Source: Earliella scabrosa
Taxonomy: Eukaryota; Basidiomycota; Agaricomycetes; Polyporales; Polyporaceae
NCBI GenBank assembly: GCA_022605405.1
Contig: JABYQQ010000004.1
Coordinates: 1,674,001-1,738,000, forward strand
Direction of reading: 5' to 3'
DNA: 64,000 nt
Shown here: piece after piece, positions 39,266-52,668 of the stretch
How positions within the stretch are numbered: position 1 is the stretch's first letter
How the letters are laid out: each line of letters begins with the position of its first letter
Program-made: the position numbers and the translations under genes
The notes under the pieces: model-generated
The model's database searches: none
The model's input: the letters and a program-made list of their open reading frames with translations, nothing else
Told to the model about the DNA's origin: nothing

Positions 39266-41200
39266 TTATCGCTCCTCCTCCGTATCGGGCTGAACAGGCT
39301 CTGAGGGAACGCTGGTGACGTCGATATTCGGCATGTCGGATACCTCGCTCCAACGAGCTCGAAGGCTCGCGCGGGCATTGAGATTCGTGAGGAGTGCAGT
39401 GGCGTATACTTCATCCGCGGTGGAAACGTAGGTTCGATAGTGAGAAAGAGGTGGGGAATGAGGGACAACGACAATGACACGTACTGTTGGCGCCTGTGTA
39501 ATACAGCAGCGTCCAGATTGGTCTCCGCGGCCAGCCGACGATCTGGCCGGTCGGTGAGCGTCGTGTGAGGAGAAGCATGTACCAATCGTAACGGGACACT
39601 GACCACGATAAGGGTCAAAAACGCAGATAGACTGTAACAGCCGGGCGGAACGATGAGCATCGTGAAGACGATGGATGCTACCAGAGTGCTTACCATGTTA
39701 ATGCGCCAGTGCTGACCGCATAGGAGGCCTATGCAAAGGAATGTCGGTCGAGACAATAATAATTTGAACAGGCTGTGGCGGAACTCACCATCCGCACTAC
39801 GAGCCGCTTGGATCGCCTACGGATGTTCTAGTTGAGGACAAGTCGGATGCATGGAGGGACTCACCGCGCGCCTCCTCTCCGTGCTCTGACAAGAAGAACA
39901 ATGAACGTCAAGGTGAGAAGGAATTCGGTCGTTGCCACCGTCGCGGTTAGCGCCATCTCAATCGTCTGGAGAACAAGACAAACGCGTTGAGTGAATTTGA
40001 GCCGTGTGAGAAGCGTAGAGAGGTCCTACTGGGCGTCGAGTAAATATCTCTATACTGCTCCCGACTTGCAAACTAATGCCAGGAATGGGATGTGAGCTAC
40101 ACACACCATACGTTGACGGAACGCACATTTGAACCAATAACGCTGTTCGCGCCGTCAACGGGACGCGTGGGATTGTATATAGCTCTATGACATACCCATA
40201 CTGAATGCTGTACAAAGATAGAATCATCGTCGTGAGCGTGGCATTCTATCAATGGTCAAAAGGGGACCTACCTAAGGATGCTGCGACAAGTGATCCCTTC
40301 TCGCCCATGAAACTCGTCGGCATGTGACAACACGACCATGCAGCAACGACTCACAAGGAAGATTATAAGCGTCAACCGCTTACTGACTACGATGAAACTA
40401 GTGTGAGTGGCGGAAGAGCAATGATGCGAGCCAGGTAACGCACGCGTCCATATGCGAAATAAGTAGTAGCTTCAGGGAGGCGTCAATATTGAGTGCATAT
40501 CAAGTGGACGCAAACGAACCACTGAACAATCAGCACCGTAGCGGCCTGAATACTCCAAGTTAGCAGCGCATGATCGGTTTGACACCAATTGGACACTCAC
40601 GGTCACTACGAGCTGTGCCTGGAAGTGACACCAGACCCTACTAATTAGCGAATTGCATGGAGGACGCAGGAGTCAAGACTCGCTTGCGAGAACCTGAACT
40701 TCGACATTGGCGATAGTGAGTGATGGCAGCTTGAATACACACCTACCAATGAACTTTGTATATGGTGTGCGTCTTGCCATGCCTCGATACGAATATGTGG
40801 AATGCTGCACCCGGGTGCCACGGTGAGCCAGACAGCTGTGGAAGAACGCGGTTTCCGGCTCACATGTTATCGATACCAAGAATGCGTGGAGGGCGTTGCA
40901 TACGAATACGGCGATCACCTGATCGCACAATCAGACAAGTGGGAGACCGAAGCTGGATTGTGCGACGTACCGAGAACTTGAGGTATCTCCTATCATGATT
41001 GTAGTAGTGTCGGTAATAGTAGCCTATTTGACCACATAGAACTTAGAAAAAGGAAGCGTTAGACTCGTCTCGGAGCAGCGATTATTCTACTAACCACCAA
41101 GGAGCCTGATGGACAACATAAAAGACCATTCCAGTGGCAGCGCTGGTGAAGACTCACACTCCGTCAAGGATCACGGCAACGAAGGACACAATTCGACTAC
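39266..41200 (-). CDS. DUF6534-type multi-pass membrane protein, copy 1
   Basis: This is a member of the large agaricomycete family of seven-helix membrane proteins annotated as DUF6534; function unknown. Recognised exons on the minus strand: a first-helix segment ending near 41154 (SRIVSFVAVILDG), 41041-40971 (LCGQIGYYYRHYYNHDRRYL), a helix near 40895-40845 (VIAVFVCNALHAFLVSIT), a segment around 40800-40745, a helix near 39735-39605 (ASIVFTMLIVPPGCYSLSAF), and the last exon 39408-39266. That exon carries the family's C-terminal signature ALLTNLNARASLRARW and an acidic tail (PDTEEER). Start codon and several middle exons are not resolved; limits at the 5' end are approximate. Divergent from the zinc-finger gene at 42703. 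Paralogue of the gene at 43988-46045. Confidence 0.68.
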
Positions 41201-42650
41201 ATGCACGCCGGATCGTCAGATAATGCACGATCAGCCAGAATCAAAGCGCGCACCTCTGTCTCAGCAACACTTCGAGTGGAAGCACTGACAATAGTGACAT
41301 TCTGAAATATGAACAGCTGGTGTAGATGTAAACGGTGAGAGAAGCCGAGACAAGGGGGGAAGAGGTGTGATGGTAACCGGCCAGATTGCACGTCTGTTCT
41401 TATCCGCTGAGAACCGCGACATCCCCTCGGCGAGGCAGATGGCTCCTCGATCGAGACAGCGGATGTGATCGACGAGAAAGTCATTGCACCACTGGCTAGT
41501 GTTGGAACTCATTACCGAGGGGGTTGCATACAAGCTACTCATGCGATAAAAAGCTTCGGTTACCGGGCAAAAGAAGAGCAGCATGAACGGAGATTGATTA
41601 GAAAATGGGTGAAGCGGTATGAGGGAGTGATCATACTAAGCGCCAAGCCAATCGCAAGTTCAACATGCCCTAAAAGGCAACCTAAACGCCCAGACATGAC
41701 GTCATCCATTGTTCCGCGCGCAATGCTGGGTGACACGTAGTCGGAACCATCGTACTGTAAACTATCGTAAAGTCAGTCAAACTCGCCCGGGAGAAGGTGC
41801 TGTCAACATAGCTCGTGTTCTATCTCCAGCCAAGCTCACGCTGACATATTCGTAGAAGTACACGCCATGTTTGTACCGGGCTCCCTCTGGTACGCGACAC
41901 CGCAGATTGGGCACCCTTACGCTTCGGATAGGGTCTGGTCGTGTGTTATACTTTCCCTCATTGTGCGTTTCTGCTTGTCCCTCTAAGTTCCCCGTCGAGT
42001 TGCAGCTCGCAAGTAGTACGCTCTCCGGCCCGTCGGATCGGTCCACTGCAGCGGTAAGCGAACTAGTTCAACTCAACGGAGTTGACTTGAAGTCCGTCTA
42101 CAGGCTCGCCAACGACATGCCTCTGCCGAATCCGCGGCGTGACTCGTGCCTACCGTTCTGGCTCTTTGGAGGTGGGAAAGTTGCCCGAGGAGTTGCTTAT
42201 TTCTGGTTGATCCTCCATTATCCACTGGATGAATTTTTCACGGCAGAAAACCTTGCCAGTGTGCCACAAACGTTGTCAGTAACGCTGAGTGGCTCCCGGA
42301 AATTCATCCAACCGAATGTAGCTGCCACTCATCATCATCACTATCGGCACCTGAACGGCGACCAGCGCTCACAGCACAATGCGTCCCACTGTCATGTTAG
42401 ACATCTCGCATGTAAGTAGTACTCTTGAGTAGCTTGTTGCATATCATTGCTGACGGTTCAACTCACCTCTTGTCACCTCTGAAAAGCATGAGCAGTATGT
42501 ACAACAGATCCTCGTGGTACTGCCGTGCTCCCTGTCAATGAACCAAGACCGTCGATGGTGACTCTCGGGTATCAGTGCCACCGGACGGAACTGAGCTTCA
42601 AGGGCGGGAGAACATGCATTGTCTGGAGTGCCGCTTAGTCCATTGCACAG
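41201..42650. other. Divergent intergenic region of pair 1
   Basis: This region separates membrane-protein copy 1 (-) from zinc-finger copy 1 (+). A plus-strand open frame at 41871-42419 (ends RHLACK) has no recognisable motif, though its length is notable. First exons of the membrane-protein gene may extend to about 41450. Confidence 0.4.
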
Positions 42651-42658
42651 TATAAATA
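42651..42658 (+). promoter_or_regulatory. TATA box of zinc-finger copy 1
   Basis: TATAAATA, 52 nt upstream of the start codon. The second copy has a similarly placed TATAAGTA. Confidence 0.55.
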
Positions 42659-42702
42659 TCACAGGTGGGCTTGTCCAAACCTCCAGAATCCACTCTTCTA
42701 CG

Positions 42703-43703
42703 ATGAGCGGGAACAGATACTACTGTCCTTCTTCCTCGGCTTCCACACCGCAGTCCACTCAAGACGCTCAGCTAGGTCCGCGCACACAATCAGGTTGCAG
42801 CATGGGTACGAGCTCGTCGACAACTCACACAGCAGTTAGGCGTGAGCACACCATGGGGGGCGTAACGAGGTATGTCTCAGCATCTCTTCATATATGAGTA
42901 ACACACCAGAGCTGAAGCTATGCAGGAGCGCGGTTCAACTCCCAGCGCACGCGAGCTATAGTTCAGACAACAGCACTCCACCCAATCTCAGTTCAGTCTC
43001 TACCTTCAGCGCTCGGGCTGCACCGATGACTAGCCCTCCAGACTACGTACATTACCCGCACTCGCCAATCGCGTCCCAACTACCGACAGCTCCTGATAGC
43101 TACTACTACCCAGCGTCAGTCCCAGCTCTGAACGTTCCTATCGCCTATGCTGCGCAAACGCAGGCTCTCTTCGCCCCGCCCACTCTACCGAGAGCACCTG
43201 TCTTGTCAGTCTCTGCGCCTGGGGGCCTTCCATCCGCCGATTCGCTACGAAGGTCCATCTCCGAGTCAGCCACTTACCCCGCTCCCGCGTCATCCCCACA
43301 TACGCCAACACATACCCCAGTTATCTACAACACACCGTCATCTGCGACCACCCACTCCATGCCCTCGCGCGTGCATTGCCCTCTCTGCAATAGGTCCTAC
43401 GGGCGACAACAAGAACTCGACCGCCACATGCGCTCGAATCACGCCGATAGCGAGCCGTTTGCCTGCTGCGGGGTACCGCTCGCACTCGCGCAGAGCAGAT
43501 ACGGGCTATCTGAGGGCGATATTGCAACCTCGACGCGCAAACGATACAGGAACATCGAGATGGTCGGCGGGTGCTGGGAGAGCACGTTCAACCGGAGGGA
43601 CAGCTACAAGAGGCACCTCGATCATACTGGGTGCATCGGAGACCAGTACGGCGAGTGGTTTCCCGGTAACCAGCGAGGTGTCGATCGGGGAGGCGCAAGG
43701 TGA
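42703..43703 (+). CDS. Atypical zinc-finger protein, copy 1
   Basis: Two exons, 42703-42869 and 42926-43703 (phase 2), give 314 residues. The N-terminal 200 residues are Ser/Thr/Pro/Tyr-rich and disordered. A C2H2 finger follows (C207, C210, H223, H228: VHCPLCNRSYGRQQELDRHM). A second, unusual cluster comes after it: CC at 236-237 (FACCGVPL), a 34-residue insert ending in the conserved core IEMVGGC (C272), then RRDSYKRHL (H286) and C292, that is CC-x34-C-x13-H-x5-C. The same two-part arrangement is in the paralogue at 47223, at matching spacing, so all these residues are probably metal ligands. Likely a DNA-binding regulator in the nucleus, by analogy with other fungal C2H2 proteins; targets unknown. 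Confidence 0.8.
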
Positions 43704-43987
43704 TGAGACACGCGCTTTCGGACTCGGTCGTTGCTACGAACATTCGCTATAATCACCAACGTGTTGGGACAACAAGGAGCAGAATGTACCAAATGTACGT
43801 GATAAATCGTTCTGATACGGAAAAGCAACATCCACCCCGTGTCCTACACCTCGTCAAGCGTCTGTGACCGCGGCACTGCCGCCATAGTGGTAGTTTTGCA
43901 TGGCGGCAATGTCCGACAGTGTGCGGATCTGGAGGCATGCGATCCGCGCATGAGCCTAGTGTAGTGCAAGCACAACGATTGCATAAC

Positions 43988-46045
43988 TCACGCAGGTGCG
44001 ACCGACACCATCCCGCTGTCCTGTTGTGTCATCTGCGGAGGTCGGGGAACTGGAGCAAGCGTGGTCACGGGAATGGTCGCAAAGTCGGTGATGTCGTTCC
44101 AGCGAGCGCGCAAGCTCTCGCGGGCGTTCAGGTTGGCCATGAATGCACTGCCGTAAACTGAAATGACGGAGTGTGAGATCGACAGTCAGGCATTTAGACG
44201 AGGTATTCGCTAGAGATGGTGGACGCACGATTTGCGCCGACTAGATAGAACATTGTCGATATGGTCGATTGCGGATAGGCCAACATCTACGATCGCACAA
44301 CAGATGTCAATATCGACACGCTATGCTCGGCGCAAGCACCTTACCGCGACTAGAGCGAAGAGCGCACAGACGCTGCCACAAATACTGAGTCACGAAGGTG
44401 TGGTACGGACATGGTTCAACGCACCAAGTTAACACTCCGGTAGACACCGTGTAAAATACCTATATACGTCAGGTTGCACCACGCAGATGGGAAGACTTCG
44501 TAGCACTGACCAGGCCCTTGACCAATCGGTATGATCGACTATGCGCGCATGTGAAGCGCACGGATGAGAGATAATCACCATTAATTGTGCGTAGTATACT
44601 CACCCGGCGCCGCCCTCCCTCGACCTGACGAGGCATATGGAAAAGCTGACAGTGAGGCAAATATCGGTCGCAACAATTGTCGCGCTGAGAGCGGTTTGTA
44701 CATTCTAGACGTTTTCGTGAGCAGACCATGCGTCGATCATCGACTGAATTCAGCTAGGCGCACCATGATGCGTTGAAGAACATCTACATCAGAGGCGTTC
44801 ACTCTGTGGCTGTACCGTCAGCGAGATGGGGCCGTTGATGCGGTGAACACACGCACATCCTCACGAAAATCGCTATCAAGAGCGACGACCATGAGCACGC
44901 ACTATTTTATGCACGAGGAACTGCTACAAACCTGTACCCAGTGCTGAGGAATAGGCAGGCGTGTTAGACCGGGATGAGAAGCCTTGTCCATACACGCACC
45001 AATCGTGCTTGCAATGAGTGCGGCCTCGCGGACCCTCAGCATGCAAGATCGTCTCCGAAGAATAGCTCGAGCGACTGCTCACCAGGAAAATCACCAGATA
45101 CCGTTGTCTGCTGACTGCGCATACATGTAGAGACAGTGAGCTTCTGCCCACACACGTGTCTTCAGTGCGAAGAGCTGCTTACTGGTCCAGATTCGGAATG
45201 CATAAAAACTGCGGGCGAGTGAACAAAAAATCTGTATACTTGATGATGGACGCTTACCAATGCACAATCAAGACAGACACAGCCTAATGACAGATGAAAC
45301 GTGAGATAGTTGTTATTGTCGACCTCTCCGTCTTACGTTGATGACAATCTGGGCCTTGCGGAACAGGCCTACGTGAGCCGTAACCTATCTGCAGGTGGGA
45401 GTGGCTCACAAGTGACGTCCTGCGTATTGTTGTCAGTGGGGTGATGAGATCAGCTAGACGGAGTGCAGGCTTACCATGGCAGCGTGGTGGGGGTTTCGTT
45501 ATGACTGACGATGAAATTGTGGTAGACTACGAGACCGTTGATATAGACACACGGGCGGATTGTTCAAAACGTACATGACGCGATGTAGAACGCAGAATGC
45601 AGGGTGTTGCAGACTAAGACAGCGGCCACCTGCTGGATCGCTAAGACCGATTACTACTAGTAACCCGACATGCGAATACGTACAGAGCCCTTGAGGAACA
45701 TCCGGTCGTGCGTGTAATGCCGGATGTAGTAGCCGATCTGACCGCAGAGGACTGGCAAGCAGGTACGTTGGCCATCAGTAGACTCACGAAGCGTGCCACA
45801 AACGAACCGCCATATAATCTGCAAGCCTCTCTGTCAAGAGCACGAGCGGGACGGACGAGCAGAACCCAGACGTACATTCCGTCGAGCATCATGCCAATGA
45901 ATCCGACCGCCCGACTTCCACAGAGAATACTGACCACGCCCGAGTTGATGGTTGGGTTTCCGTCAGCCTCAGTGACGTCAAGCAAGGTCGACAGATGATT
46001 GAGCAGACCAGATGGCGGCAGCGGACCGAGCGAGTGGTCGCTCAT
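43988..46045 (-). CDS. DUF6534-type multi-pass membrane protein, copy 2
   Basis: Paralogue of 39266-41200. The start is at 46045 (MSDHSLGPLPPSGLLNHLST) with the first helix SRAVGFIGMMLDG, matching SRIVSFVAVILDG of copy 1. Then come a segment LQIIWRFVCGTL and an exon LCGQIGYYIRHYTHDRMFLK (end near 45684), again matching copy 1. A later helix ICGSVCALFALVA is near 44390-44350, then YPQSTISTMFYLVGAN near 44270-44230. The last exon, 44157-43988, has the signature FMANLNARESLRARWNDITD and a Pro/Gln-rich tail. Exons between about 45600 and 44400 are not resolved. Divergent from the zinc-finger gene at 47223. Confidence 0.72.
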
Positions 46046-47151
46046 GGCGTCGACGGTGAGCAGAGGGGACGGAGGCGTGAATGAGAGTTAGCAGAAGGAT
46101 GGTCTGTTATTCTTTATCGACGACTCTCTGAAAGCCGATGCATTGGATCCACATTATAGGAGCGGAAGTGCCGTGATTTCGATCCAAACTGGGTCTTCCG
46201 CTCGTTTCCCCCGGATATTAAAATTTAGGAGCTTTAGTGGCACATCTTCTGGCTAGCATCTGGACCACTCCGTGTAATTGGTGATGATGGACCGCGTGGG
46301 GAGCTATAGGCGAAGTGGGAGGTTGAGAACCTGCAGGCTGCTCACGATGCGGTGACATAGTGCGACTGCCAGAGGGTGGGAGATATTACGTAATCATCGT
46401 TCGTGGGCGCCTTGGCATATCGTAGCCACAATCCCAGTCTAGTACTAACTACTTCGACTACATAGACCCGCGTCTTGCTTGGTGTTGCTCTGACTGATGA
46501 GGGTTCCCTGAAATGCACGCCTTGTAGCATACACCCTCGGCGAACTGTAACATGCCAGTTGCGGTTGGGGTGACATCGTACGCGCGTCCTGTCAGTGTGT
46601 CTGCCAACGCACGCCTGCTCAGGCCGCTTATTGGGCTACATCTGCCTCAAGTTCGTGTTTGGAATCCGAATCCTCCGTGGAATCGATGGTGAGCTCTACA
46701 CTTCAGTTAGGCTGGAACAAGTAATATCTCTTCTCAGGCCTGGACCTTACCATCTGGCGACCGTACAAGTTGTGGGGCACATCCAGGTCGACTGATGAAT
46801 CATCAGAACGACGTACGTCGACCAATCAACAAATCGGAACGCTCTAGGTCGATAAGTGACCGATGCAACACCGGGCGCGCAAGGGAACACAACATATGCC
46901 CGGACGCCACTCACCAGACGCTAAGCGTTGTCACTAAGTGATATCACTCACGCCTTCCATTGTGCCACTCGGTAAGAATTCTCGCCTATTCCCACTCTCC
47001 TTTCTCATCCCGTTGGGTATACAGATAGATACCCGGGATCCATGTGCACATTTGCTGGGATGCGACCGGTTCATCAATGGCGGGTGAGATTTCGCACGTT
47101 TTTGGACTGCATTATAGAATTGTGGACTTGCTGCGCGGTCAGGGAGGTCTG
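46046..47151. other. Divergent intergenic region of pair 2
   Basis: Region between membrane-protein copy 2 (-) and zinc-finger copy 2 (+), about 1.1 kb. No open frame with a motif. A TATA box lies at its right end. Confidence 0.4.
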
Positions 47152-47159
47152 TATAAGTA
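47152..47159 (+). promoter_or_regulatory. TATA box of zinc-finger copy 2
   Basis: TATAAGTA, 71 nt upstream of the start codon at 47223. Confidence 0.5.
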
Positions 47160-47222
47160 CCCGGACTCTCCGCCCCGCCGTTCCTCGAGCTATTGACGCT
47201 ATCCGCGCAACCTTACGCGACG

Positions 47223-48747
47223 ATGTTCCACGGCTACCACACAACGTCGAGCTTCACCACCACCGCCTCAGTTCTGCGTCACTGTGGCACAGATGTACCT
47301 ACTGCCGAACCATCGTCTTACTATAACAAGTTGTCTGAGTGGCACAACCCAACGCTCTTCTCCGACGACGAATTGGTCGCACACAGTCATCTTTCCCACC
47401 CACCCACTTCTAATGTGGATCGCGGACTGGGTTTCAACTTCTACGACGATCAACTCTGGTATGTTGCTTTTGTCCTAGTCCCAATCCCTCATTGGCTAAC
47501 GACTGAGTCACTACTACAGGTCTGTGGATCTAGACTCTCCGGCATCTGCCGTCCCGTATACGAGTGGCCCCTGCAGCGTATATCAGTACGCTTGCCCGCC
47601 TTCGACCGCCGATGCACAATTCATCCCGACCCTCGTCTCGGTCTTCCCGATGGAGGTCCTCACGATGCCGACGCCCACCGTCTTTCCTCGCACTCACAGC
47701 GCGATCAAAGATCCTATCCACCATCGACCTGTCGTCCAAAACGTTCACCGAATGGAGTCTTGCCGTGTTCCAGCCAAAGCGTTCGGGTATCCGTCCGTCT
47801 TGGAGCCGGCTGCATGGCAGAAACTTGCTGCGTCGCAATGCGTCGCGTCATCTACTACTCCGGACTGGATGCAGTCCTCATCGCCGGTACGTGTGCTCAA
47901 CGGCGAAGACGATGAGCGGCATCCCTCGCGGCCAACCCAAACGAAGAGTTCACCTCGCGCTGATCAGTCGAGCGCCCCAGCATCTGAGGCCCCACTCCAA
48001 TCGGTGGGTGGTCGCACGGCGCATATGAAGCTCCGCATCACATCCTACACGCCCTCGCGCACACGTCGTATCGCCACGCGCATGTCGTTATCCCCCTGCA
48101 CCTCCATCACATCCTCAGCTTCGTCGTACTCTCACACCAGCCGCGGTAACACTCCCTCGAAAGGCTTCTCCCCTTCACCCTCGTCGCCGTCTACACCTCC
48201 CCCTCAGGCTACAGAGTCTGCCAGCCAACTCCCCTCGTCTTCCAATCCCCCGCTCAGAGAGTCGACAGTGCCCCCTTCACCCGCGCCCGCCTCCAGGTCC
48301 ACCCGCCCTTCCCTCATATGCCCGCACTGCCCGCCCAGCAAAGCCCACGAGTTCGGGCGCCCACTCGACCTCGAGCGGCACATCACCTCCATCCACCGCT
48401 CCTCGCCCAACGCCTGGGTCTGCTGCGGCATCCCGCTCGAGGTCGCGAAAGAGCGGCCGGACATCCCGCCGCACGTCCTCGCCGAGCAGCCGCGCGAGTA
48501 CAATGGGATACAGATGGTCGGCGGCTGCGGGACGCCGAACAGCCGCAAGGACGTGCTCAGGCGGCATCTGCGCCGGAACGCGGGCAGGTGCTTCGGGGAC
48601 GAGAACGCGGCGTACCTGCTCGGAAACCAAGCGCGTGTGCGGTCGGTGCGGGGCACGCGGAGCAAGGACACGCAGGGGGTGCGGGCCCCGCTGGGAGAAG
48701 GAGCGGCTGGGGAGAGCGGGAAGGGAGAGCGGTCTGATCGAGATTGA
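47223..48747 (+). CDS. Atypical zinc-finger protein, copy 2
   Basis: Two exons, 47223-47458 and 47520-48747 (phase 2, as in copy 1), give 487 residues. The N-terminal 330 residues are Ser/Thr/Pro-rich with basic patches. Then a C2H2 finger, C-x2-C-x16-H-x4-H (LICPHCPPSKAHEFGRPLDL, then ERHITSIH), followed by the second cluster: WVCCGIPLEVAKE, a 33-residue stretch, the core IQMVGGC, then RKDVLRRHL and GRCFGDE (CC-x33-C-x12-H-x7-C). The C-terminal 50 residues are Gly/Arg/Lys-rich. Intron position and phase, the order of both clusters and the MVGGC core show that the two copies arose by duplication, with the disordered part diverging fast. Confidence 0.83.
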
Positions 48748-49578: not shown

Positions 49579-50776
49579 TTAGAGCGCAACCGCGAACGAG
49601 AACGCGGCGACGCCGAGCGCAAGGCCCGCACGCGCGAGGTAGCTGTCGACGCCAAACGCACGCAGCGCGCCGTTCTCGTTCTCCGCGCCAGCACCCGTCG
49701 TGTTCGTCGTGGGGCTCGTGTTGAGACCGGTGTTGCTCGTCGTCGGCGCGGGCGGGGCCAGACCAGGGTTCGAGTTGCTTGAGGGCGGAGGAGCGGCAGG
49801 GGAGGAGGGAGTGGTGGTGGGGTCAGTGGCAGGAACATCCGGGGTGGTTCCAGGAGTACCAGTCGAGCCAGTTCCGGTCGATCCAGCAGCGCCACCGAGG
49901 TAAGACGGGGCGGCCACCGCCGTGGACGGATCGACTAGCGCACCGACGCCCCAGGGGATGGGCTGGCCATCGGGCTCAAGATCGTTCTCGGGAGGAACGG
50001 TGCTGCCATCTGCGCCGGCGATCGTGAAGCGAGTTGTCCAAGTGATGGCGGCGGGATCCGCAGGGGTGCTGAATTGGTAGAAGTAGATGGCCGAGTTAGG
50101 AGTTACCTGACAAGAGACGCGAGCGTTAGCGCTGCATATACACAACAAGGCGTACGTGTGGTGACGTCTTGCAAAAGGAGCATAGAGAGTCAGGGACAAC
50201 ACAACTCCGCCGCCCGAGCATTGCAGGGATAATCAATGTAGTATTAAATGGACGCGAGGCACGATGCGTGATGATAATCCCATCGTCCATCGCGACAGGT
50301 CTCAAGGAGCGAACACCGATTGAACGGACCGAATGCCGCAGATCAAAGGCACGCAGTCAGGAAGCCCAGATATATCATGGAAGTGGAGTGCACAGCACGG
50401 CACGCTGGCAGGACCGGCTTCACCTGACCGAGACGAGAACGAGAAGATGCTCACCTGGGGGCACGGGTAGGAGAACGTCGTCGAGGACGCGTCCGTTCCG
50501 TCAACAGTAGCGACGGCTGATAGGCAGGCGTGTGAGCAGGGGTCCCGGAGTGCAAGCGGGGCAAGACGTACTGGAGATGTGGACCATGTTGAAGTTGTCC
50601 CCCGTCATGAGCTGGATGTTCATCTCCTTCCAGACGCCGGCAGCATCTGGGGTCCAGGTGATCGAGCACTGTTCGCCCTGCCTGAAGACGTCGCCGGGGC
50701 CGGGCGCGGAGGGTACGGGCTCTGCGCGGACGAGCGCGGAGCCGGCGAGCACAGCAGCAACAGCGTATGCAAGCAT
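49579..50776 (-). CDS. Ser/Thr-rich GPI-anchored protein, Kre9/Knh1-like domain, copy 1
   Basis: Three exons, 50776-50572, 50516-50455 and 50106-49579, give 264 residues. A signal peptide (MLAYAVAAVLAGSALVRA) is followed by the Kre9/Knh1-type fold (GDVFRQGEQCSITWTPDAAG, IQLMTGDNFNMVHIS, ATVDGTDASSTTFSYPCP, NSAIYFYQFSTPADPAAITW). Then a Thr/Pro/Ser/Asn-rich stalk suited to O-mannosylation, and a C-terminal hydrophobic tail (AGLALGVAAFSFAVAL) preceded by small residues, the GPI-attachment pattern. Known: proteins with this domain sit at the cell surface or wall, and yeast Kre9/Knh1 act in beta-1,6-glucan assembly; a role for this family in mushrooms is not settled. Tandem, same-strand paralogue at 51601-52668 with identical intron phases. 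Confidence 0.88.
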
Positions 50777-51600: not shown

Positions 51601-52668
51601 TCATGACATGACGCCGAAAACGACGGCCGTCAGGCACATCGCGAGCGCACCCGCGACGACGTTTGCCTGCGCGCTGAGCGCACCGTTGTCCCCGCCTGCT
51701 CCAGTGCTGCCATCCCCGTTCTGGTTCTGCGTGTTGCCCGTCTGCTGTGGAGGGTTCTCCGTCGTGGGCCCGGCACCACTGCCGCTCCCGCTCCCGTTCC
51801 CGCTGTCGTTGCCGCTTCCGTTCCCGCTTGGCTCGCTCGACGGGGTGGGGGAGAGACTGACGGGTGTAGAAGATGAGGAGCTGGACGGAGAAGACGAAGG
51901 CGAAGAGGGCGATGATGGAGAGGATTCGCCTCCTGCAACGAGGTAGCTGGGCGGCGGTGTCGCCTTGGACGGGTCCACGAGCGCTCCGACGCCCCAGGGG
52001 ATCTTCTGGTTGTCCGGCTGCGTGTCGTTCGCAGGAGGGGTCGTCTGCCCGTCTGCATCGGCGATCGTGAAGCGCGTCGTCCAGGTAAGGTTTCGCGGTG
52101 CGGCGGACGTGGAGAACTGGTAGAAGTAGATCGCAGAATTGGGCTCAACCTGCGATCAGTGTTGAAGTCCGGAGGGACACAGAGACCGGGCGTGATCCGA
52201 GTGGGAGATTGCATACGGTGTACGATCAGACATTTAGCGACCATCATGGACTCGAGTATAAAAATAGAACTCACGTCGGGGCAGGGGTAGCTGAACTCTG
52301 TCGTTGCAGCGTCCGTACCGTCGAAGGTGGCAACAGCTACGACGCATCGTAGGGTCACGAAGGGAAGGAGGGTGCGAGTGCTCTCGAGTCAGGACAGGTA
52401 TGGGAGGTATGCAATAAGACTCACTCGTGATGTGGATCATGTTGAAATTGTCGCCCGTCATGAGCTGGACGTTCGTCTCCTTCCACAAACCCGCTGGGTC
52501 GGGGTTCCACTTGATCGTGCAGTTTGTGCCTTCGTTGAAGACATCACTGGGGCCAGGAGCGGTAGGGACGACGCCAGGCACGACACCAGCAGGAATATCC
52601 GCGGGATCCGGGGCCGCCAGAGTCGAACCGGCAAGGATGTGGGCGAAGAGCTGATTGAAGCCGCGCAT
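51601..52668 (-). CDS. Ser/Thr-rich GPI-anchored protein, Kre9/Knh1-like domain, copy 2
   Basis: Three exons, 52668-52425, 52336-52275 and 52149-51601, give 284 residues. Exon 2 is exactly 62 nt and intron phases (1, 0) match copy 1. It begins MRGFNQLFAHILAGSTLAAP, a rather polar signal peptide. The domain reads SDVFNEGTNCTIKWNPDPAG, VQLMTGDNFNMIHIT, ATFDGTDAATTEFSYPCPD, NSAIYFYQFSTSAAPRNLTW. The stalk differs from copy 1: a Ser-Pro run and then Gly-Ser-Asn repeats (NGSGNDSGNGSGSGSGAG). The end is a GPI-type tail (VVAGALAMCLTAVVFGVMS). So the folded domain is under constraint while the stalk diverged by repeat turnover. Confidence 0.88.

What the first reader, a model, noticed from the sequence alone, without database searches (positions are those of the whole stretch)
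39266..48747. A divergent membrane-protein / zinc-finger gene pair, duplicated in tandem
Seen: the layout DUF6534-type protein (-) then zinc-finger protein (+) occurs at 39.3-43.7 kb and again at 44.0-48.7 kb. Both members are paralogous between the units: SRIVSFVAVILDG/SRAVGFIGMMLDG and LCGQIGYY-x-RHY on the membrane side; the C2H2 plus MVGGC cluster and the same intron phase on the zinc-finger side. Each pair shares a 1.1-1.5 kb promoter region with a TATA box on the zinc-finger side. Inference: whole-module duplication that kept the head-to-head order suggests the two genes work together, for example a surface sensor and its regulator. No such system is known to me.
Basis: partly seen in the sequence, partly recalled or inferred. 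Interest (0 to 1): 0.75.

Follow-up and report, generated by a model that had tools for sequence, protein, structure and literature searches.

The report
Interleaved mushroom receptor-like and zinc-finger genes
In a wood-rotting fungus, two sister membrane-protein genes alternate with two distantly related zinc-finger genes; the pattern is real, but the evidence does not show that the two kinds were copied together as one working unit.

Summary
The genome is Earliella scabrosa (Polyporales). Both membrane genes are DUF6534 proteins once spliced (21 and 20 mostly tiny exons). They are each other's nearest relatives found in the genome: 45% identity, 19 of 19 introns of M2 matched in M1. The zinc-finger genes behave differently. 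They belong to a dispersed family of at least 15 places, and neither is the other's nearest relative. ZF1 is nearest to a copy 416 kb away, with ZF2 next; ZF2 is nearest to a Daedaleopsis nitida protein (68%), then to copies on C6 and C1. Column resampling made them nearest in 2 and 0 of 500 draws. The shared intron phase looks like a family trait, and the two intergenic regions share no similarity. In none of 13 other zinc-finger neighbourhoods (9.9 kb each) was a DUF6534 gene detected. So "duplicated whole, therefore working together" is not supported, though an old module duplication is not excluded (AU p 0.08 and 0.34). Best reading: a DUF6534 tandem duplication inside a small zinc-finger cluster. 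Other fungal genomes, the decisive test, could not be reached.

The parts
39266..41300 (-). M1, a DUF6534 protein gene, 294 aa, 21 exons (10-143 nt, median 32) and 20 introns of 48-76 nt, one of them GC-AG
   Evidence: Hand-spliced in parallel with M2, so its intron positions are not independent of M2's; DUF6534 40.5 bits against cut-off 28.2 on a draft splicing; 45% identical to M2 over 282 aa
41301..42702 (.). Intergenic region M1/ZF1, 1402 bp; TATAAA at 42651 on the ZF1 side, none on the M1 side
   Evidence: no similarity to the other intergenic region (best blastn E 2.5)
42703..43703 (+). ZF1, a C2H2 + CCG/VGGC zinc-finger protein gene, 314 aa, exons 42703-42869 and 42926-43703, phase-2 intron
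   Evidence: zf-C2H2 21.2 bits on the exon-2 frame, below the 25.2 cut-off; nearest relative C4:1301429
43844..46045 (-). M2, a DUF6534 protein gene (C8Q76DRAFT_717042 of Earliella scabrosa, 353 aa in the public model; my 20-exon reading stops at 43988 with 326 aa). The end at 43844 is placed by eye. Its tail faces the tail of ZF1
   Evidence: Public model P0001 found by sequence; my splicing shares its first 326 residues but was guided by it at several small exons; DUF6534 57 bits on a draft splicing
46046..47222 (.). Intergenic region M2/ZF2, 1177 bp; TATAAG at 47152 on the ZF2 side, none on the M2 side
47223..48747 (+). ZF2, a C2H2 + CCG/VGGC zinc-finger protein gene, 487 aa, exons 47223-47458 and 47520-48747, phase-2 intron
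   Evidence: ortholog-like protein in Daedaleopsis nitida, 68% over 92% of the searched domain; zf-C2H2 only 13.3 bits on the exon-2 frame

Best explanation
This is a small local cluster in Earliella scabrosa made by two separate histories. M1 and M2 are a tandem duplicate of one DUF6534 gene, encoding a receptor-like multi-pass membrane protein. ZF1 and ZF2 are two older, long-separated members of a dispersed zinc-finger family that also sits in loose local clusters on C6 and C9. The alternation and the head-to-head gaps come from where the DUF6534 copies landed between and beside the zinc-finger genes. Most likely working: each DUF6534 protein is a seven-helix surface protein, perhaps G-protein coupled; each zinc-finger protein is a nuclear DNA- or protein-binding factor driven by its own TATA promoter. 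Shown: gene structures, families, and relative kinship within the genome. Inferred: topology, location, biochemical role, and the absence of a dedicated partnership.
For: Genome searches with draft M1 and M2 return as non-self matches only each other (1 of 7 and 2 of 8 rows). Splice-aware alignment scores M1/M2 at 423-427, against best scores of 71-118 for 8 of 8 other DUF6534 loci. The 19 introns of M2 all have a phase-matched partner in M1, including exons of 10, 11 and 12 nt; M1 was spliced with M2 in view. ZF1: best relative C4:1301429 (47%, 73.3 bits), ZF2 next (39%, 58.3 bits); BLASTP 92.4 against 67.8 bits, the latter level with the D. nitida protein (67.8) and C6:2341351 (67.0). ZF2: ZF1 is tenth of 14 rows, self included, at 58.9 bits behind six copies at 84-88 bits. 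Resampling: nearest in 2 of 500 and 0 of 500; ZF1 was second to ZF2 in 4 of 500. Tree: ZF2 + D. nitida 95/93 starred, ZF1 + C4:1301429 83/74. N-terminal parts of ZF1 and ZF2 do not align (best E 0.67), those of ZF2 and D. nitida do (4e-4), in a four-sequence comparison. DUF6534 detected near 0 of 13 other zinc-finger genes. Phase-2 intron in other family members.
Against: The order M-ZF-M-ZF with constant orientation is just what one duplication of a two-gene block would leave. Two of at least 15 family members standing 5 kb apart is unlikely by chance (my judgement, not computed), so ZF1 and ZF2 may share a local origin. ZF2 is the second-best match of ZF1 in the genome. A clade of ZF1, ZF2, C4:1301429 and the D. 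nitida protein is not rejected (p 0.338), nor strictly is one of ZF1, ZF2 and D. nitida (p 0.084). The domain is short (112 columns) and fast-evolving; only 1 of 13 inner branches is starred, and C4:1301429 sits on a long branch.
Confidence: 0.58

Rival explanations
1. One old tandem duplication of a DUF6534 plus zinc-finger block, before Earliella and Daedaleopsis parted; zinc-finger copies later dispersed from each half, so that ZF1 and ZF2 no longer look like sisters.
For: Alternating order and orientation; gaps of similar size (1402 and 1177 bp) with TATA on the same side; ZF1 and ZF2 only 5 kb apart and ZF2 second-best match of ZF1; AU test does not reject the needed clades (p 0.084 and 0.338).
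Against: ZF1-ZF2 distance (1.02) lies inside the range of ZF1 with its other relatives (0.79-1.34) and of ZF2 with its in-genome relatives (0.96-1.44), while M1 and M2 score more than three times higher with each other than with any other DUF6534 locus tested. No DUF6534 detected beside the supposed dispersed descendants, 0 of 13. No intergenic similarity.
Confidence: 0.33
2. A functional receptor-regulator module, with the shared intergenic region co-regulating a surface sensor and its transcription factor.
For: Head-to-head layout seen twice; DUF6534 proteins have been proposed as novel GPCRs (PMC12842992, passages seen).
Against: Intergenic gaps over 1.1 kb with a TATA box on one side only do not need a shared promoter. 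The pairing was not detected in 13 other zinc-finger neighbourhoods. The zinc-finger split does not match the membrane-gene split.
Confidence: 0.09

Closest known systems
DUF6534 (Pfam PF20152) proteins of Agaricomycetes
   Same: Both membrane genes pass the family's score cut-off on draft splicings; hydrophobic multi-segment proteins; large family in this genome (31 exon-level matches at E <= 0.001).
   Different: M1 and M2 are cut into 21 and 20 mostly tiny exons, while several other matches in this genome lie in open frames of 160-313 aa.
Putative novel fungal GPCR class defined by the DUF6534 domain (PMC12842992)
   Same: Same domain, and the paper's candidates are enriched in Polyporales among others; it started from sequences with seven predicted helices and modelled G-alpha interaction in silico (passages).
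   Different: M1 and M2 were not put to that classifier here; there is no G-protein evidence.
C2H2 zinc-finger proteins (PF00096)
   Same: C-x2-C-x(12-16)-H-x(3-4)-H present in 16 of 16 rows examined; C4:1301429 passes the Pfam cut-off (29.4 against 25.2).
   Different: ZF1 and ZF2 fall below the PF00096 cut-off. The rows add a conserved C.G.P...GGC...R.D...H...C stretch that looks like a second, unnamed metal site (14 rows aligned, the other 2 seen).

Membership tests
DUF6534 (PF20152) | Pfam profile score above the curated cut-off (28.2 bits) | tested here: met
   40.5 bits (M1) and 57 bits (M2) on draft splicings
DUF6534 (PF20152) | Seven-helix membrane topology (recalled as typical; passages of PMC12842992) | tested here: inconclusive
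   Hydropathy gives 6 segments in each; single-sequence AlphaFold2 model of the public M2 shows 7 helices of 18 or more residues but mean pLDDT is 43
Fungal GPCR | Coupling to a G-alpha protein | not testable with these tools
   Only in-silico claims for the domain in PMC12842992
C2H2 zinc finger (PF00096) | Profile score above cut-off (25.2 bits) | tested here: not met
   ZF1 21.2 bits on the exon-2 frame and 24.5 for its domain alone; ZF2 13.3 bits. The ZF1 domain alone passes the related zf-met model (21.8 against 21.2), and the C2H2 residues are present in both
Co-inherited divergent gene module | Both members show the same duplication split | tested here: inconclusive
   M1/M2 mutual nearest; ZF1/ZF2 nearest in 2 of 500 and 0 of 500 resamplings; AU test p 0.084 and 0.338
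Co-inherited divergent gene module | Pairing recurs at other loci of the genome | tested here: not met
   DUF6534 detected in 0 of 13 other zinc-finger neighbourhoods (9.9 kb each): top score 58, while 8 of 8 DUF6534 loci score 71 or more and a further likely one scores 65. The margin is narrow, so a very divergent gene could be missed
Co-inherited divergent gene module | Pairing conserved in related species, co-expression | not testable with these tools
   No fungal genome other than the window's own was within reach; no RNA-seq

The most novel reading that the evidence does not exclude
A two-gene sensor-regulator unit, a DUF6534 seven-helix receptor and a lineage-specific double-site zinc-finger factor, was duplicated whole long ago, and the two copies diverged into two private signalling lines.
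Probability: 0.09. Interest if true: 0.6.

Novelty: new member of a known kind. Interest (0 to 1): 0.22.

Why it matters
DUF6534 is a large family of mushroom-forming fungi recently proposed as a new class of GPCR; I know of no ligand or downstream partner for it. A conserved gene neighbour that is a transcription factor would have been a direct lead. This check removes most of the support for that lead at this locus and names the test that would settle it. It also shows two DUF6534 genes so finely split (10-12 nt exons) that an exon-wise genome scan with the Pfam model did not list them.

Tried and rejected
First hand-splicing of M2 seemed to need two 1-nt frameshifts, which suggested a pseudogene; the public model P0001 showed extra residues there that fit 11- and 10-nt exons, and like exons were then found in M1. 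Pseudogene reading rejected.

A genome scan with PF20152 at E <= 10 (88 matches) did not list M1 or M2, presumably because the domain is spread over several exons; exon-wise scans were therefore not trusted for the neighbourhood test, and a splice-aware alignment was written instead. A plain tblastn and phmmer with M1/M2 drafts on the 13 neighbourhoods had also given only weak matches (best tblastn E 0.23; no phmmer match).

The first protein search used only the 107-aa ZF1 domain, which shuts out full-length relatives by length; it found nothing and is uninformative. The M2 search returned only its own public record at E <= 0.01 among 4822 candidates. I do not read that as absence elsewhere: ZF2's own E. 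scabrosa protein was not returned either, so the collection seems to lack some of this proteome.

The single-sequence structure of P0001 was too poor (pLDDT 43) for a fold search, so none was run. Introner-like origin of the many introns: the 39 introns show no similarity to each other beyond chance level (best E 0.10). A viral-contig scan with P0001 found nothing. A general paper search on divergent gene pairs gave nothing specific (listing only).

A likely DUF6534 gene does lie on C9 near 1105050 (+): weak Pfam match E 0.013, splice-aware score 65 with M1, family-like residues by eye. It lies about 9 kb beyond one zinc-finger member (1095377, +) and about 5-6 kb from the 3' end of another (1111347, -), and is not head-to-head with either. 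With 13 loci and dozens of DUF6534 matches in 51.7 Mb I judge one such case unremarkable (rough estimate, not computed in a call). Of the roughly 10 kb between the stretches fetched around those two members, only 3 kb was read.
Full report
What was checked. The finding claims a DUF6534 membrane gene (-) head-to-head with a zinc-finger gene (+), twice in a row, both members paralogous between the units, and infers a duplicated working module. I tested structure, family identity, kinship of each half, and recurrence of the pairing elsewhere in the genome.

Source. The window lies in a 51.7 Mb genome (G000:C4:1674001-1738000). A protein search with the second membrane protein returned one record, C8Q76DRAFT_717042 of Earliella scabrosa, on a contig of 3,027,493 bases, the length of C4. 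The organism is therefore Earliella scabrosa, Polyporales.

Gene structures. M1 runs from 41300 to 39266 in 21 exons and M2 from 46045 to 43988 in 20 exons; the public M2 model has a longer tail, whose end I place at 43844 by eye. My M2 splicing shares its first 326 residues with the public model, but that model guided me at several small exons. M1 was spliced in parallel and reads through without a stop. The proteins are 45% identical over 282 residues. The 19 introns of M2 all have a counterpart in M1 in the same phase; M1 has one more near its start. Since M1 was spliced with M2 in view, this agreement is partly by construction, though the frames and splice signals it needs are in the DNA. 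Both pass the DUF6534 cut-off on draft splicings (40.5 and 57 against 28.2 bits). ZF1 (42703-43703) and ZF2 (47223-48747) each have two exons and one phase-2 intron. The head-to-head gaps are 1402 and 1177 bp with TATAAA at 42651 and TATAAG at 47152; by the pattern used no TATA box faces the membrane genes. ZF1 and M2 are tail to tail.

Membrane half. Genome searches with draft M1 (7 rows) and M2 (8 rows) return, besides themselves, only each other. Eight of eight other DUF6534 loci, the best of the 31 matches, give best scores of 71-118, and a likely ninth on C9 gives 65. Backgrounds reach 47 on reversed sequence (26 runs) and 53 elsewhere in the window. M1 and M2 are thus a tandem pair standing apart from the family members tested.

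Zinc-finger half. Searches with the two domains find 14 places each, 15 in union, hence 13 besides ZF1 and ZF2. ZF1's best relative is C4:1301429 at 47% and 73.3 bits; ZF2 is second at 39% and 58.3 bits, just ahead of C9:1111347 at 54.9. ZF2's best in-genome relatives are six copies on C6 and C1 at 47-52% and 84-88 bits; ZF1 ranks tenth, self included, at 58.9 bits. A Daedaleopsis nitida protein matches ZF2 at 68% over 92% of the domain (61% over 144 residues) and weakly in its N-terminal part (E 4e-4 in a four-sequence comparison), where ZF1 and ZF2 show nothing (E 0.67). In a tree of 16 rows, ZF2 pairs with D. nitida (95/93) and ZF1 with C4:1301429 (83/74, the latter on a long branch); 9 of 13 inner branches are open. 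Holding ZF1, ZF2 and D. nitida together costs 9.95 log units (AU p 0.084); adding C4:1301429 costs 2.01 (p 0.338). So a common origin is disfavoured but not rejected. In 500 column resamplings ZF2 was nearest to ZF1 twice, and ZF1 nearest to ZF2 never; ZF1 was second in 4. Corrected distances: ZF1-ZF2 1.02, inside the ranges of ZF1 (0.79-1.34) and of ZF2 with in-genome relatives (0.96-1.44); ZF2-D. nitida 0.46; M1-M2 0.71. Different proteins have different rates, so this is not a clock.

The shared intron phase looks like a family trait: of 8 other members read by eye (of 13), 6 show a full phase-2 5' intron and 2 show the donor. The two intergenic regions have no similarity above chance (best E 2.5).

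Recurrence. I fetched 9.9 kb around each of the 13 other zinc-finger genes, about 6.8-6.9 kb upstream and 2.7-3 kb downstream. The top splice-aware score is 58 (L038); it ends at residue 338 of the public M2 model, in its tail, and plain tblastn at that place had matched residues 300-325, so I count it as background. A DUF6534 gene is detected in 0 of 13. The gap between 58 and the weakest likely true locus (65) is narrow, so a very divergent DUF6534 gene could be missed. One likely DUF6534 gene on C9 lies 5-9 kb from two zinc-finger members but not head-to-head.

Setting. Of 10 other open frames scanned, two match housekeeping families, ESCRT-II (8.3-9.0 kb) and STT3 (28.9-30.2 kb); 8 match nothing at E <= 0.001.

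Literature. DUF6534 occurs in 4 papers of the library and PF20152 in 2 of these. PMC12842992 (start of the abstract, seven passages) proposes the domain as a new GPCR class, enriched in Polyporales, Agaricales and Boletales. PMC8955403 and PMC12387923 each name the domain once, in a list or table (single passages). PMC9602373 was seen in the listing only. In what I saw, no paper describes a DUF6534/zinc-finger pairing; that rests on the searches.

Verdict. The layout is real. The claim that the pair was duplicated whole is supported for one half only. The functional inference is weak. An old block duplication with later dispersal of zinc fingers remains the main rival and needs other Polyporales genomes to decide.

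Noticed in passing
window 39266-41300 and 43988-46045: Two DUF6534 genes with 20 and 19 introns in under 1 kb of coding sequence; median exon 32 and 30 nt, exons of 10, 11 and 12 nt in both, one GC-AG intron in M1. Introns are not similar to each other, so no introner family is apparent. Several other DUF6534 matches in the genome lie in much longer open frames.
   Followed up: partly
window 49579-50232 and 51601-52155: Two neighbouring minus-strand reading frames with clearly similar parts (PNSAIYFYQFST...WTTRFTIA...IPWGVGALVDPS) and Ser/Thr/Pro-rich tails, probably another tandem duplicate pair of surface proteins right beside this cluster. The first had no Pfam match.
   Followed up: no
G000:C9:1095026-1112372: A likely DUF6534 gene (near 1105050, +) lies between two other members of the zinc-finger family, not head-to-head with either.
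   Followed up: partly
zinc-finger family, window 43321-43660 and 48300-48640 and L037-L049: Besides the C2H2 site the 16 rows keep a second set of Cys/His (C.G.P ... GGC ... R.D ... H ... C) that looks like an undescribed second metal site. Of four members scanned, only C4:1301429 passes the C2H2 cut-off over its frame. Six of the 15 places are on contig C6.
   Followed up: partly
collection of the search for homologous proteins: ZF2's own E. scabrosa protein was not returned in a search with ZF2 although M2's was in its search, so the public annotation of this locus may be incomplete.
   Followed up: no
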